A stretch of 64,000 nucleotides of DNA from Arthrobacter pullicola (GTDB lineage: Bacteria; Actinomycetota; Actinomycetes; Actinomycetales; Micrococcaceae): positions 274,385 to 338,384 of the forward strand of contig NZ_JACSQC010000005.1 in the NCBI RefSeq assembly GCF_014836875.1, in the 5' to 3' direction. Of this stretch, positions 2,678 through 57,678 are shown one piece after another. Position numbers and translations under genes: made by a program. Positions within the stretch are counted from its first letter, which is position 1. Each line of letters starts with the position of its first letter. The notes below the pieces were generated by a model. That model was not told where the DNA came from. It was given only the letters and a program-made list of their open reading frames with translations, and made no database searches.

Positions 2678-3742
2678 GTGACCTGCTCAGCGAAATCCCC
2701 GAAGTCCTGCTCGATTGTTCCGCCCTATCTGCTCGCACGAATCGCGGAACGCCCGGACCGCCTCGCCGCAGCGGCGGATGCGGCCCGCCGGACACTGATG
2801 GAACAGCGTGCCGTAGAGGAACACCGCAAACAACGCCGGACCGCGCCGGCCCCGGGGCCGGGAACCGCTCTCACACCCAAAATCCGCCGCACCGTCTTCG
2901 ACGCCGGACAGAAGCAGGAACTGCCCGGCACCCCGGTCCGGACGGAAGGCGCACCGCCCACCTCCGACCCGGCCGTGGACGAGGCCTACGACGGATTGGG
3001 TGCAACCTACGCCCTGTTCAGCGACGCCTACGGCCGCTCATCGGTCGACGGCGCGGGACGTCCGCTCCACGCCACCGTCCACTACGGCCGTGACTATGAC
3101 AACGCGTTCTGGGACGGCAACCAGATGGTCCTGGGCGACGGCGACGGCGAAGTCTTCCAGCGCTTCAGCAAATCCCTGACCGTCATCGGCCATGAGCTGA
3201 CCCACGGCGTTATCCAGTACACCGCCCGGCTGGTCTACCAGGACCAGGCCGGAGCGCTGAACGAGTCGGTCTCCGATGTGTTCGGTGCGCTGGTGGAGCA
3301 GAAACTCCTCGGCCAGTCGGCCCGCGAAGCCTCCTGGCTCATCGGTGAAGGCCTGTTCACACCCGAAGTGAACGGGAGGGGCCTGCGTTCCATGTCGGCT
3401 CCAGGCACCGCGTACGACGACGACGTGCTGGGCAAGGATCCGCAGCCTGCGGACATGTCGGGGTACGTGGAAACCAGCTCCGACAACGGCGGCGTGCACC
3501 TCAACTCCGGAATCCCCAACCGCGCCTTCTACCTGGCTGCTTCCCGGCTCGGCGGTTACGCCTGGGAACGTGCCGGGCAGATCTGGTACGACACCATTAC
3601 CGAACCGAACTTCCCCGCGGACTGCACTTTTAGTCTCTTCGCTGCCGCGACCGTCACGGCAGCGGAAAAACGCTACGGCGCCGGGGGCCCGGAAAGTTCT
3701 GCTGTGCAGGCAGCATGGAAAGAGGTTAACGTCATGGTATGA
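2678..3742 (+). CDS. M4 family metalloprotease, protealysin type
   Basis: A thermolysin-family zinc endopeptidase of 354 residues. The short N-terminal propeptide carries the PPYLL motif (residues 15-19) typical of protealysin-like precursors. The zinc site is HELTH (172-176) with the third ligand Glu196 in GALNESVSD. The C-terminal DNGGVHLNSGIPN supplies the active-site histidine. I see no signal peptide, as in other protealysin-type enzymes. GTG at 2678 is chosen because ATGGAGGG (2663-2670) lies 7 nt before it. The stop codon overlaps the start of the next gene by the sequence ATGA, so the protease and the putative inhibitor are translationally coupled. Confidence 0.93.
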   Translation: MTCSAKSPKSCSIVPPYLLARIAERPDRLAAAADAARRTLMEQRAVEEHRKQRRTAPAPGPGTALTPKIRRTVFDAGQKQELPGTPVRTEGAPPTSDPAVDEAYDGLGATYALFSDAYGRSSVDGAGRPLHATVHYGRDYDNAFWDGNQMVLGDGDGEVFQRFSKSLTVIGHELTHGVIQYTARLVYQDQAGALNESVSDVFGALVEQKLLGQSAREASWLIGEGLFTPEVNGRGLRSMSAPGTAYDDDVLGKDPQPADMSGYVETSSDNGGVHLNSGIPNRAFYLAASRLGGYAWERAGQIWYDTITEPNFPADCTFSLFAAATVTAAEKRYGAGGPESSAVQAAWKEVNVMV

Positions 3743-9425: not shown

Positions 9426-9486
9426 CCGGCACCCGGCCAGCCGCGGCTCGCGGCAGGCCGGGTCTGCCCTGTACGCGCCGTGCAGG

Positions 9487-15217: not shown

Positions 15218-15252
15218 AAAAGGGCGGCAACCTCAAAGGCTGCCGCCCTTTT
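15218..15252 (-). terminator. Terminator of the rpmB-rpmG-rpsN cassette
   Basis: AAAAGGGCGGCA (15218-15229) pairs with TGCCGCCCTTTT (15241-15252). On the minus strand the hairpin is followed by a T-run, and it lies 20 nt after the rpsN stop, so it is a standard intrinsic terminator. Confidence 0.85.
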
Positions 15253-22957: not shown

Positions 22958-22998
22958 GGGTGGGTGGAAACACAGGACCTGGGTGGGTGGAAACACAG
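22958..22998. repeat. 18-bp direct repeat upstream of the M23 gene
   Basis: GGGTGGGTGGAAACACAG occurs at 22958-22975 and 22981-22998 (period 23 bp) in the 261-bp gap between the M23 gene and the downstream oxidoreductase. No gene is visible in the gap. The perfect repeat could be a protein-binding pair or a slippage product. Confidence 0.6.
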
Positions 22999-23072
22999 AG
23001 CGGCTCACCACGAGGCAGATCTGTAGCGCGTTCGTGGAGGCGTTCCAGATACGCTTTGGCCGCGGGTTCCCT

Positions 23073-24044
23073 TCAGTTGCCCTCCGCCGTGACATCGGTG
23101 GGGTTCACGCTGACCAGAACCTTGCCACGTGCACCGTGTGACAGGAGCGATTCGAAAGCCTGCGGGGTTTGTTCGAAAGGCAGAACCCGGTCCACGACCG
23201 GCCGGATAACACCACTGTCGACAAGTTCGGCGATCTTGCGCAGATGCTCACCGTTGGGCCGAATGAACAGGAACCGGTAGGTGACGCCGAGCCGGCGGGC
23301 CCGCCGGCGGGTGGTGGCACTCAAACCCCGGATTGCCAGCTTCACCAGCGGGTTGACGCCGACCTGGGTTGCGAAGGCAGGATCCGGAGGCCCGGTAATG
23401 CCAATAACGGTACCTCCAGGGCGGACAACGCCGAGCGACCGCTTCAAGGTTTCGCCGCCCTGCGTATCCAGCACGAGGTCAATGTTCGACAGCTTCTCGG
23501 TGAAGTCTTCGGTGCGGTAGTCGATGACGATGTCTGCCCCAAGTTCCCGCACGAACTCTGCGTTGGCGCTGCTGACGGTGGTGGCAACAACAGCTCCCAG
23601 GTGCTTTGCCAGCTGGATCGCCACCGTTCCGACTCCGCCGGAGCCACCGTGGATAAGAACGTTTTGCCCAGACTGCAACTTGCCCATCTCTACCAGGCCT
23701 TGCCAAGCCGTCAGAGCGACCACCGGCAGTGCTGCTGCTTCCACCACGTCCGTGGATTTCGGAATCAGCGCCAGATCGCCCTCCTGTACGGCGACAAATT
23801 CCGCAAAGGCTCCCATGCGGGCCTGATTCGGATAGGCAAATACCTGCATGCCGGGAGTGAATTTGGAGGCTTTCGAGCCAAGAGCCACGACTTCCCCGGC
23901 AAACTCGCTGCCTATGACCATGGGCAGCTTGAACGGGAAGATCTGTTTAAATTCACCAGAGCGGAGCCGTTCATCACCATGATTAACGCCCGCGGCGCGC
24001 ATCCGAACCAGGACCTCGTGGTCCCCCAGCACCGGTTCAGGCAT
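23073..24044 (-). CDS. NADP-dependent oxidoreductase (quinone reductase-like), N-terminally truncated
   Basis: A zinc-free medium-chain dehydrogenase of 323 residues from ATG 24044. It retains the GroES-like region from PEPVLGDHEVLVRMRAAGVNHGDE on, and the complete Rossmann domain with HGGSGGVGTVAIQLAKHLGA. Relatives begin about 18-20 residues earlier with a MKAFVLxKYG-type strand, which is absent on this strand. That missing piece appears on the opposite strand just upstream inside the HxlR reading frame (see 24061-24116). The frame is open upstream but encodes no family sequence. The protein may be misfolded or inactive. It is divergent from the HxlR gene, with start codons that touch or overlap. 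Confidence 0.8.
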   Translation of the reverse strand: MPEPVLGDHEVLVRMRAAGVNHGDERLRSGEFKQIFPFKLPMVIGSEFAGEVVALGSKASKFTPGMQVFAYPNQARMGAFAEFVAVQEGDLALIPKSTDVVEAAALPVVALTAWQGLVEMGKLQSGQNVLIHGGSGGVGTVAIQLAKHLGAVVATTVSSANAEFVRELGADIVIDYRTEDFTEKLSNIDLVLDTQGGETLKRSLGVVRPGGTVIGITGPPDPAFATQVGVNPLVKLAIRGLSATTRRRARRLGVTYRFLFIRPNGEHLRKIAELVDSGVIRPVVDRVLPFEQTPQAFESLLSHGARGKVLVSVNPTDVTAEGN

Positions 24045-24057
24045 GCTCACCTGTGTG

Positions 24058-24516
24058 ATGGGCGACAGGAGCAGGAAGAAGGCGTTTGTCCTCCAGAAAT
24101 ACGGAGCAACGTCGCCTCGGTCTGACTGCCCGATCAACCGTGCCCTTGAGATGATCGGAGACCAATGGAGCCTGGTGATCCTGCGGGATATCGCGGCTAA
24201 CGATCGGCGAAGCTTCCGTGAGCTCTGCACCGCCAACGAGGAAGGGATCAGCGCCCCGGTATTATCGAGGCGGCTTGCCGACCTGACGAGGGCCGGGTTC
24301 CTCACTAAGGCCGATACCCCACCCGGGAAGCAGGGCCAATACTCGTTGACCGAGCTGGGCCTGCAGACGATCCCGCTGATGGTGGAGTTGGCGCGGCTCG
24401 GGGTTCTCCTGGACCCCGCGACAGCCCGGAATGCACCGGAGTTCGTGCATCCGTCGCATGCCGGAGGCCTGGAGACGGAAATCGGCGAGCTGCGCCGGCG
24501 GCATCTTGGCGGTTAA
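24058..24516 (+). CDS. HxlR family transcriptional regulator
   Basis: A winged-helix regulator. The core SDCPINRALEMIGDQWSLVILRDIAANDRRSFRELCTANEEGISAPVLSRRLADLTRAGFLTK is the HxlR domain, with the near-N-terminal Cys24 in the position often used for redox sensing. The first 21 residues (MGDRSRKKAFVLQKYGATSPR) are not typical and contain what looks like a displaced oxidoreductase N-terminus. ATG 24043 is an alternative start that overlaps the oxidoreductase start on the other strand. HxlR regulators often control a divergent oxidoreductase, as here. Confidence 0.88.
   Translation: MGDRSRKKAFVLQKYGATSPRSDCPINRALEMIGDQWSLVILRDIAANDRRSFRELCTANEEGISAPVLSRRLADLTRAGFLTKADTPPGKQGQYSLTELGLQTIPLMVELARLGVLLDPATARNAPEFVHPSHAGGLETEIGELRRRHLGG
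24061..24116. other. Candidate microinversion or invertible segment
   Basis: GGCGAC (24061-24066) and GTCGCC (24111-24116) are inverted repeats around 44 bp. On the plus strand the segment encodes RSRKKAFVLQKYGATSP inside the HxlR frame. If the segment is flipped, the minus strand reads KKAFVLQKYGATSP and then runs in frame into ITQVSMPEPVLGDH of the oxidoreductase, rebuilding the usual N-terminus of that family, though the expected ATG is AAG. The flip was worked out by hand from the sequence. Confidence 0.6.
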
Positions 24517-24574
24517 CCGAACCGGCCAAGCACCCGGCCAGAGCCCGGTCAGGACATTTCGGTGACCAGGCCGG

Positions 24575-25654
24575 TCAGGAAAGTTCGGCGCGGCCGTGGC
24601 GCCAGTACCCCATAAAAGCGACCTGCTTGCGGTCAATCCCGGCGTCCCGGACCAGGTAGCGCCGCAGTCCGCGGACCACGGCAGCTTCGCCGGCAATCCA
24701 GGCGTAGAACGGCAGGGCGCCAGCCGGAGTGTTCGGGCTCGGGGAGTTTTCCACAACTTCAGGGGTCAGCCGCGCCGGGGTCTCCCACAGGATCGCCGAA
24801 TCGATGTCCACTTCTTCGGGTTCCTGTCCGCGGCCGGGGGCCACCGTCGCCGGCGGTGCGCCGTCGGCAGTGCCCAGGCTCGCATACCCCGGAACAGCAA
24901 CGGCTTCCCGGACCGCGGCTTCCAGGAGTTCTCCGTGGGGACGGCTGCCGCGCGGCAGCCAGGTGACGGCGACGCTCGAGGCGGTGCTTATCGGCTGGGC
25001 ATCCGCTTCATCCGGGATTTCCAGCAGCGCATGGCCGGTGATGCCGGCCGGCAGGTGTTCCAGAATGGAAGCTACGGCAGGGACGGCGGTTTCGTCGCCC
25101 GCCAGCAGCACGTGCTGGGCCAGTCCCGGACGCCATTCGATGCCGCCATAGGATTCCGCGGTGACGCAGTGCACCGCGTTGGGGCCGATGACCGTGACCC
25201 TGTCCCCCGGCCGCGCCTCGGCAGCCCATTGGGACGCAGGCCCACCCACACCGTCTGCGTCGAAGTGCAGGACGAAGTCGACGTCGATTTCCGGTTCCGG
25301 GGCGGTGCAGCGGGAGGCACGGACGGTGTAGGTGCGCATGGAGCCGCGCTGCTGCGCATCCATCGCGAGCCAGTTCTGGTACCAGCCAGCGTCGTCGCAG
25401 TTTAGTTCGGGGAGCTGCTGCCGCGTCCCGTCTTCTGCAGCCGGTGGGATAACGACCTTGATTCGCAGGTCATCCGCCTGCCCCTGCACACCGAAGCTGC
25501 GCAGGCATTCCCCGCCGAACGTGATCCGCTGGAAGTTGGCGCTGAGCCGGCGAACGGAACGGACTTCAACCTCGAAGGCGCTGACCGCGGCATTGGCACC
25601 CTGGCGGCGCGGTTTCACTGCGTCCGCTGACGTGCGGGTACGTATGCCGGTCAT
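24575..25654 (-). CDS. Siderophore-interacting protein (ferric-siderophore reductase)
   Basis: A 359-residue flavin reductase-like protein (ViuB/YqjH class) that releases iron from imported ferric siderophores in the cytoplasm. The FAD-binding barrel holds MRTYTVRA (RxYTxR motif), followed by HFDADGVGGPASQWAAEARPGDRVTVIGP. The NAD(P)H domain contains LLAGDETAVPAVASILE and ends with FYAWIAGEAAVVRGLRRYLVRDAG. An insert of about 55 residues (PGRGQEPEEVDIDSAILWET and surroundings) makes it longer than average. Its start overlaps the stop of the upstream ATPase gene by four bases, so it is the last gene of the iron operon. Confidence 0.92.
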   Translation of the reverse strand: MTGIRTRTSADAVKPRRQGANAAVSAFEVEVRSVRRLSANFQRITFGGECLRSFGVQGQADDLRIKVVIPPAAEDGTRQQLPELNCDDAGWYQNWLAMDAQQRGSMRTYTVRASRCTAPEPEIDVDFVLHFDADGVGGPASQWAAEARPGDRVTVIGPNAVHCVTAESYGGIEWRPGLAQHVLLAGDETAVPAVASILEHLPAGITGHALLEIPDEADAQPISTASSVAVTWLPRGSRPHGELLEAAVREAVAVPGYASLGTADGAPPATVAPGRGQEPEEVDIDSAILWETPARLTPEVVENSPSPNTPAGALPFYAWIAGEAAVVRGLRRYLVRDAGIDRKQVAFMGYWRHGRAELS

Positions 25655-31106: not shown

Positions 31107-31152
31107 AAACCATCGGCCCGGACCCGCAGCTGGGGGTGCGGGCCGATGGTTT
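31107..31152. terminator. Bidirectional terminator
   Basis: AAACCATCGGCCCG (31107-31120) pairs perfectly over 14 bp with CGGGCCGATGGTTT (31139-31152). It lies between the stops of the epimerase gene and the YihY gene and is flanked by A and T runs on both sides. Confidence 0.9.
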
Positions 31153-31161
31153 TCGAGCGTC

Positions 31162-45086: not shown

Positions 45087-45456
45087 CCGAACTCCAATGT
45101 TCTTCTGCGGTCTTTGGTTGCCGGCGCCGCCAAGGCGGCGCCGGCATGCGCCCCAGCATCGTCCATTTCTGAGCACCGCGCTGCCCGACACGCCGTCCGG
45201 ACCTGAGCGCACAGTGCAGGACCTGCCGCAACCTACCGGCGGGTAACTAGTTTTCCAAAACCCTTGCTTTGTTACCGATCAGTAAGTTAGATGTAACCGA
45301 CATCACATTCCTACCGGCCGGTAACCCTCGATTGTGACACCGCGTGACAGGGACAAACCGGTCCGGGCACCACCCTTATGCGGGGCTTACAGGCGCTATA
45401 CCCGCAGTCCGCGCGGTCGAGGAAGACCGCTGTTTGAACCAGAAAAGGGATATTCA
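45087..45456. other. 370-bp divergent gap
   Basis: It separates the OxlT-type carrier gene and the heptad-repeat protein gene. It holds three palindromes (separate entry) and a promoter candidate for the plus strand, TTGCTT (45264-45269) and, 17 nt on, TTAGAT (45287-45292), which straddles the middle palindrome. The ribosome site AAGGGA precedes ATG 45457. No gene is evident. Confidence 0.5.
45233..45324. promoter_or_regulatory. Array of three palindromic operators, 39-bp period
   Basis: CTACCGGCGGGTAA (45233-45246), TTACCGATCAGTAA (45272-45285) and CTACCGGCCGGTAA (45311-45324) fit the consensus YTACCGRYSRGTAA. Starts are exactly 39 bp apart. They resemble TetR-family operators. No TetR gene is adjacent. 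Outside the 14-mers the three 39-bp units are not alike, so this is not a simple tandem duplication. Confidence 0.65.
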
Positions 45457-57628: not shown

Positions 57629-57678
57629 AAAAACAGCCGGTGCTGGTTTCGAATTCCGAACCAGCACCGGCTGTTTTT
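57629..57678 (+). terminator. Strong terminator after the ABC exporter
   Basis: AAAAACAGCCGGTGCTGGTT (57629-57648) pairs perfectly over 20 bp with the arm at 57659-57678, followed by TTTTT within the arm's end. The stop of the EamA pseudogene's shifted frame lies inside it, so it also serves that direction. Confidence 0.95.

What the first reader, a model, noticed from the sequence alone, without database searches (positions are those of the whole stretch)
24043..24120. A flipped 44-bp segment seems to have cut off an oxidoreductase's start and moved it into the divergent HxlR gene
Seen: GGCGAC (24061-24066) and GTCGCC (24111-24116) face each other around 44 bp. The oxidoreductase at 23073-24044 lacks the first 18-20 residues of its family, while the plus-strand HxlR frame contains KKAFVLQKYGATSP, which looks just like that missing start (family N-termini of the MKAFVLxKYG type). 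Flipping the segment on paper joins KKAFVLQKYGATSP in frame to ITQVSMPEPVLGDH, with family-like spacing. Inference: a microinversion by template switching between short inverted repeats, or a phase-variable switch that disables the oxidoreductase and alters the redox-regulator-like HxlR N-terminus. A caveat is that the residue where ATG is expected is AAG.
Basis: partly seen in the sequence, partly recalled or inferred. Interest (0 to 1): 0.75.

Follow-up and report, generated by a model that had tools for sequence, protein, structure and literature searches.

The report
Flipped start, lost promoter: broken gene pair
Compared with two close relatives, this bacterium carries a 45-base piece, holding the start of an enzyme gene, flipped into the neighbouring regulator gene, and lacks about 120 bases of likely promoter DNA beside it; this was likely one copying error that probably silenced both genes, rather than a reversible switch.

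Summary
In the 2 of 28 other congeneric genomes where a DNA search found this gene pair, window 24064-24108 lies in the opposite orientation and starts the oxidoreductase as MKAFVLQKYGAPITQVS-MPEPV. Those relatives also have 119-120 bp between the segment and the HxlR gene that the window lacks: a palindrome (GTGGTTGCATT...AATGCAACCAC), boxes that I read by eye as promoters, and the HxlR start codon. It was found nowhere else in the window's genome. So the window shows an inversion plus deletion, and the moved enzyme start codon reads AAG. It looks like a one-way scar, not a phase switch: the 6-bp left arm is absent in relatives, the deletion is linked, and no resolvase-family gene was found. 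The relatives' region folds into a strong single-strand hairpin (z about -4), which points to replication template switching; that step is inferred. The downstream hydrolase gene is also reduced to a remnant, so this looks like an accessory redox operon being dismantled. A new example of a known mutation type, at a neat place.

The parts
24064..24108 (-). microinverted block: former oxidoreductase ribosome-binding region (AGGAG) and first codons, now facing the HxlR strand; 45 bp here, 46 bp in relatives
   Evidence: blastn minus-strand matches, 96% and 98% identity; forward-backward-forward alignment with one gap has 5-6 mismatches against 37-39 for a single jump
24108..24109 (.). deletion junction: 119-120 bp present in both relatives is missing between these bases (palindrome, likely divergent promoters, HxlR ATG ATC)
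24063..24063 (.). junction base C that matches neither flank of the relatives; completes the 6-bp GGCGAC arm
23073..24044 (-). N-terminally truncated MDR-superfamily oxidoreductase ORF (323 aa), quinone-oxidoreductase-like; 17 N-terminal residues and native ribosome-binding region lost, likely promoter lost
   Evidence: PF08240, PF13602; TIGR02824 best hit but below cut-off; alignment A1
24109..24516 (+). HxlR-family regulator body (from TSPRSDCP); native ATG ATC lost; frame now open from ATG 24043 or ATG 24058 through the moved segment
   Evidence: PF01638; relatives begin MITSPR; start list
23029..23076 (-). remnant of the alpha/beta-hydrolase gene that follows the oxidoreductase in relatives
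   Evidence: 49-column blastn match, 82%; uninterrupted over the match in A. luteolus, stop-interrupted in A. gallicola

Best explanation
Against two close relatives, the window carries a 45-bp inversion of the oxidoreductase start joined to a 119-120-bp deletion of the likely shared divergent promoter, a compound scar that likely arose in one replication template-switch error and likely silenced both genes. Shown: orientation, deletion, loss of both native start codons, and absence of the lost DNA from the rest of the assembly. Shown: in both relatives the lost stretch carries a palindrome with 11-bp arms; by eye its outline persists in A. castelli and Janibacter, and I read promoter-like boxes in it. 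Inferred: the palindrome is the HxlR operator and folded into a hairpin that stalled replication; the nascent strand switched to the opposite strand, copied about 46 nt backwards, and resumed beyond the hairpin. Inferred: without promoter, ribosome-binding site or native start, the enzyme is not made or is made without its first 17 residues, and the regulator is not made or carries a foreign N-terminal extension. The loss fits an operon already eroding, as its hydrolase gene is also nearly gone here.
For: Junction letters. Of 80 loci, the six with an HxlR hit next to the enzyme all have an M-initiated N-terminus upstream of the window's Met. Forward-backward-forward alignment: 5-6 mismatches and one gap, versus 37-39 for a single jump. 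The relatives' junction region folds as DNA at z -3.98 and -3.87, 0 of 200 shuffles as stable; the outermost pair of the large hairpin is L012 2930-3059, the deleted block 2924-3043. Strict operator pattern: one site in each relative, none in the window's genome. Hydrolase remnant. No plus-strand promoter-like site at 23900-24575.
Against: Both ORFs are still open and window-specific codon changes look constrained (oxidoreductase 19 synonymous, 6 not; HxlR 8 and 2), so either the event is recent or the proteins are still used. Template switching leaves no unique signature: two breaks with end joining, or deletion and inversion as separate events, could look the same; microhomology is at most 2 bp, with a mismatch, at the left junction and nil at the right. 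The consensus scanner called no promoter in the lost stretch of the relative, so the promoter reading is by eye. One minus-strand promoter-like site (24289-24261, also in the relative) could still serve the truncated enzyme. Only one assembly of this species was available.
Confidence: 0.77

Rival explanations
1. Phase-variable invertible switch: the 44-bp segment flips back and forth between 6-bp arms and toggles enzyme and regulator.
For: Inverted arms GGCGAC/GTCGCC flank the segment; the opposite orientation does exist in relatives.
Against: Relatives lack the left arm (GGGTGC) and carry 119-120 bp more; the lost DNA was not found elsewhere in the assembly; one base is missing in the former start codon; no PF00239 hit in the genome and two PF00589 hits only on contigs C13 and C15.
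Confidence: 0.02
2. Two or more separate events: a promoter deletion first, then a short inversion (or the reverse), by end joining or by single template switches.
For: A prior deletion joining CTGTC to GTCGCC through the shared GTC would explain the odd C at 24063 as copied sequence (my reading of the letters).
Against: It then leaves the AC before GTCGCC at the right junction unexplained; no intermediate was seen, but only three genomes with the pair were found.
Confidence: 0.2
3. Assembly or amplification artefact: the cell has the normal arrangement.
For: Only one assembly of the species is held; reads were not available.
Against: The segment occurs once in the genome, the assembly is rated 99.99% complete in 15 contigs, and an artefact would have to make two junctions, return to the same locus, and drop one base inside; the neighbouring hydrolase gene is independently degraded.
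Confidence: 0.04
4. The regulator still works in its new form: translated from ATG 24043 or 24058, it is 20 or 15 residues longer than in relatives, the extension partly taken from the enzyme's first codons, and other targets keep it under selection.
For: The frame is open from a stop at 23980; HxlR changes on the window branch are mostly synonymous (8 to 2); the cysteine of SDCP is kept.
Against: No Shine-Dalgarno-like sequence directly before either ATG (my reading) and no plus-strand promoter-like site; the strict operator pattern is absent from the genome. One window-specific change, Tyr to Asn, hits a position that is Tyr in the eight homologues and in P0008, though Glu in P0115.
Confidence: 0.1

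Closest known systems
Short-range template-switch mutations and microinversions (PMC7954356: abstract and outline seen; PMC8755829 and PMC8604942: passages seen)
   Same: An in-place segment replaced by its reverse complement, short, non-palindromic, with inverted-repeat or hairpin context; double template switch or microhomology-mediated break-induced replication proposed.
   Different: Here 45 bp with a linked 119-120-bp deletion in a bacterium; PMC8755829 describes 59 mostly clean 17-33-nt events between human and chimpanzee, all flanked by inverted repeats; here the perfect 6-bp arm exists only in the derived state.
Palindrome-stimulated deletion in bacteria (Bzymek and Lovett 2001; Lovett 2017: seen only as reference entries)
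   Same: The lost DNA is a hairpin-forming near-palindrome.
   Different: A simple deletion would not flip the neighbouring segment.
QorR with its quinone oxidoreductase in Corynebacterium glutamicum (Ehira 2009: reference entry only, paper not held; QorR named as quinone oxidoreductase regulator in a passage of PMC6306002; its family, divergent arrangement and cysteine sensing recalled)
   Same: HxlR-type regulator beside a quinone-oxidoreductase-like gene; a Corynebacterium MAG locus (L069) has this layout.
   Different: Function of this pair untested; in the window the likely shared promoter is gone.
Invertible promoter switches (recalled; reversible inversions in B. fragilis mentioned in a passage of PMC10710837)
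   Same: A small segment changes orientation between genes.
   Different: No recombinase found nearby, no ancestral arms, linked deletion: apparently not reversible.

Membership tests
microinversion | segment is the reverse complement of the orthologous sequence at the same place, not a palindrome | tested here: met
   (self-complementarity 0.4)
microinversion | window state is derived, not ancestral | tested here: met
   both congeners with the pair, plus A. castelli, two Janibacter and one Corynebacterium locus, have the full enzyme N-terminus beside a divergent HxlR
template-switch mutation (four-point, with deletion) | one jump out, backward copying, one jump back explains the letters | tested here: met
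   5-6 mismatches and one gap versus 37-39 for a single jump; other two-junction mechanisms fit equally
template-switch mutation (four-point, with deletion) | microhomology or inverted repeat at the switch points in the ancestral sequence | tested here: inconclusive
   at most 2 bp with a mismatch left, none right; strong hairpin next to the site
phase-variable invertible element | inverted arms present in both states | tested here: not met
   left arm GGCGAC absent in the two relatives
phase-variable invertible element | cognate recombinase nearby | tested here: not met
   PF00239 not found in the genome, PF00589 only on C13 and C15; other inversion enzymes not searched
phase-variable invertible element | both orientations in one population | not testable with these tools
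   no reads; one allele in the assembly
HxlR family regulator | PF01638 above cut-off | tested here: met
   34.1 bits, cut-off 20.8
MDR-superfamily oxidoreductase | PF08240 and PF13602 above cut-off | tested here: met
   62.0 bits (cut-off 23.5) and 105.7 bits (cut-off 27)
PIG3-type quinone oxidoreductase (TIGR02824) | score above curated cut-off | tested here: not met
   207.4 bits against 296.8 for the window; the full-length relative is also below (205.9)

The most novel reading that the evidence does not exclude
Palindromic operators between divergent regulator and enzyme genes are built-in fragile sites: the hairpin that the regulator needs for binding also provokes template switching, so that regulator, enzyme and promoter are lost together in a single one-way step that swaps start regions between the two genes.
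Probability: 0.15. Interest if true: 0.6.

Novelty: new member of a known kind. Interest (0 to 1): 0.4.

Why it matters
It is a clean natural example, with relatives that fix the direction of change, of a microinversion-deletion in a bacterial divergent promoter region. In the aligned parts (about 323 kb against one relative, 309 kb against the other) of one 338-kb contig it was the only clear case. It shows how gene calling can go wrong at such scars: a truncated enzyme and an over-long regulator would be annotated as normal genes. If hairpin operators prove prone to this, it gives a testable one-step route for losing regulator-enzyme pairs.

Tried and rejected
Phase switch: rejected. The 6-bp arms as cause: rejected, because the left arm is absent in relatives. 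Chance match: rejected. A fused HxlR N-terminus elsewhere: not seen among the 120 listed of 228 homologues, judged by coverage (none above 86% of the query save P0115 at 90%); I read ten of them, and P0115 has an unrelated extension.

Other inverted matches in the window (31107-31161, 57629-57678, 15218-15252, 9431-9466) were read and are hairpins; 45119-45146 has self-complementarity 0.93. In the contig-wide comparison 43 and 28 small inverted matches were listed, of which 36 and 25 have self-complementarity of 0.55 or more. Only the given one had E under 1e-4 with self-complementarity of 0.5 or less. One near miss (C11 199700-199766 against G012, 76%, 0.45, E 1.4e-4) overlaps a match of 0.81 in the other comparison and was set aside; the other low-complementarity matches have E of 0.2 or more.

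Against my reading: metagenome protein P0126 begins MPEPLL, so a start at that Met was called elsewhere; its upstream DNA could not be read. The exact-repeat scan found palindrome arms of 7 bp or more at this site in both congeners (11 bp) and one Janibacter (8 bp), not in A. castelli or the other Janibacter, where the outline is by eye only. A protein-level look for diverged copies of the pair in the other 26 congeners was not made; one search showed enzyme-like matches of 66-69% in three of them (G002, G003, G023), not followed up.

No dedicated study of bacterial microinversion-deletions stood among the papers listed by four library searches (20 of 1,416, 1 of 1, 12 of 23 and 12 of 21 listed); that is no proof of absence. 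Searches for the regulator-enzyme pair gave listings only. Solved-structure searches gave only distant relatives.

Full report
Observation. The 6-bp arms alone are weak evidence: 20 inverted pairs of 6 bp or more lie in the same 301 bp.

Relatives settle it. A DNA search of 29 genomes of the genus (28 besides the window's own) gave matches across both genes in two others, G005 and G012; two more had only short weak matches. In both, the DNA up to window 24062 and from 24109 onward aligns forward (94-95% over the two genes), but window 24064-24108 matches only on the opposite strand, at 96% and 98%. In both, a further 120 bp (A. gallicola) or 119 bp (A. luteolus) lies between that segment and the HxlR gene and is missing here. 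In the relatives the enzyme starts GACAGGAGCAGGA-ATG-AAG-GCG (MKAFVLQKYGAPITQVS, then MPEPV), and HxlR starts ATG ATC ACG TCG CCT CGG. In the window the former enzyme start codon is one base short and reads AAG.

Direction. A full enzyme N-terminus next to a divergent HxlR is also found in A. castelli, two Janibacter and one Corynebacterium locus (6 of the 80 loci have an HxlR hit beside the enzyme, the two congeners included). Of 228 HxlR homologues, none of the 120 listed aligns over the fused N-terminus, judged by coverage (the one exception by coverage, P0115, has an unrelated extension); the eight read first begin MITSPR. The window state is therefore derived.

What was lost. In both congeners the missing DNA holds a palindrome with 11-bp arms, GTGGTTGCATT...AATGCAACCAC, and a central GTATAG. 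One Janibacter keeps exact 8-bp arms; in A. castelli and the other Janibacter the outline persists by eye only. I read it as two back-to-back promoters with the arms as -35-like boxes; the consensus scanner called no promoter there. A strict pattern of this site occurs at one place in each congener and nowhere in the window's genome. None of the missing DNA was found elsewhere in that genome.

How it formed. Aligning the window as forward, backward, forward pieces of a relative gives 5-6 mismatches and one gap, against 37-39 for a single jump. The relatives' region folds as single-stranded DNA at z -3.98 and -3.87. The outermost pair of the large hairpin (L012 2930-3059) starts 6 bp inside and ends 16 bp beyond the deleted block (L012 2924-3043). 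A polymerase stalled at that hairpin, switching to the opposite strand and returning beyond it, would explain flip and deletion in one step; this is inference. Double-strand-break repair by microhomology-mediated replication, proposed for human microinversions (PMC8755829, passages), is a close alternative. A single C at 24063 fits neither flank; it makes the 6-bp arm perfect and may be a product of the event.

How unusual. In contig C11 (338 kb; 323 and 309 kb aligned to the two relatives) this was the only inverted, colinear match with E under 1e-4 and self-complementarity of 0.5 or less; 36 of 43 and 25 of 28 listed matches are self-complementary at 0.55 or more, and the four read were hairpins. 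Between the two relatives themselves no such case appeared (24 matches listed, all 0.59 or more). C11 is about a tenth of the genome; the rest was not compared.

Consequences. Enzyme: native ribosome-binding region and 17 residues gone, likely promoter gone; nearest in-frame ATG is 24044. Regulator: native start gone; the frame is open from ATG 24043 or 24058, which puts 22 or 17 residues before TSPRSDCP where relatives have two, so 20 or 15 residues longer. The ATGs at 24043 (plus) and 24044 (minus) overlap in one GCATGC, so no space for a promoter remains between these two starts. One minus-strand promoter-like site inside HxlR is shared with the relative. The likely outcome is silence of both genes, but both frames remain open and window-specific changes are mostly synonymous (19 to 6 and 8 to 2), so the event is recent or some product is still used.

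Context. The gene behind the enzyme, an alpha/beta-hydrolase, is uninterrupted over a 291-residue match in A. luteolus, interrupted by a stop in A. gallicola, and reduced to a 49-column DNA match at 23029-23076 here. The DNA search did not find the pair in 26 of the 29 genomes of the genus. This looks like an accessory redox operon being dismantled (inference).

Switch hypothesis. No PF00239 hit in the genome; two PF00589 hits, on contigs C13 and C15. With the linked deletion and the missing ancestral arm, a reversible switch is very unlikely.

Verdict. A real, well-polarised microinversion with deletion; the mechanism class is known, and the gene-swapping outcome is a tidy example rather than a new kind.

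Noticed in passing
window 23029-23076: Remnant of an alpha/beta-hydrolase gene that follows the oxidoreductase in relatives: uninterrupted in A. luteolus, stop-interrupted in A. gallicola, nearly gone here.
   Followed up: yes
window 23001-24500: The enzyme/HxlR stretch is 94-96% identical to both relatives while the 500-bp bins around it are 83-94%, mostly 87-92%; strong constraint or homologous exchange of the pair.
   Followed up: partly
L046 from 3001: In A. castelli the oxidoreductase frame runs without a stop into the alpha/beta-hydrolase (615 codons from VPEPV): possible natural fusion or a sequence error.
   Followed up: no
window 22960-22975 and 22983-22998: Two copies of GTGGGTGGAAACACAG between the M23 peptidase gene and the hydrolase remnant, at the edge where alignment to relatives breaks.
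   Followed up: no
window 57629-57678 and 31107-31161: Long terminator-like hairpins; in 57629-57678 the arms are conserved and the loop differs between species.
   Followed up: partly
protein P0126: Metagenome homologue annotated from MPEPLL, like the truncated enzyme here; start call or independent truncation, upstream DNA not seen.
   Followed up: no
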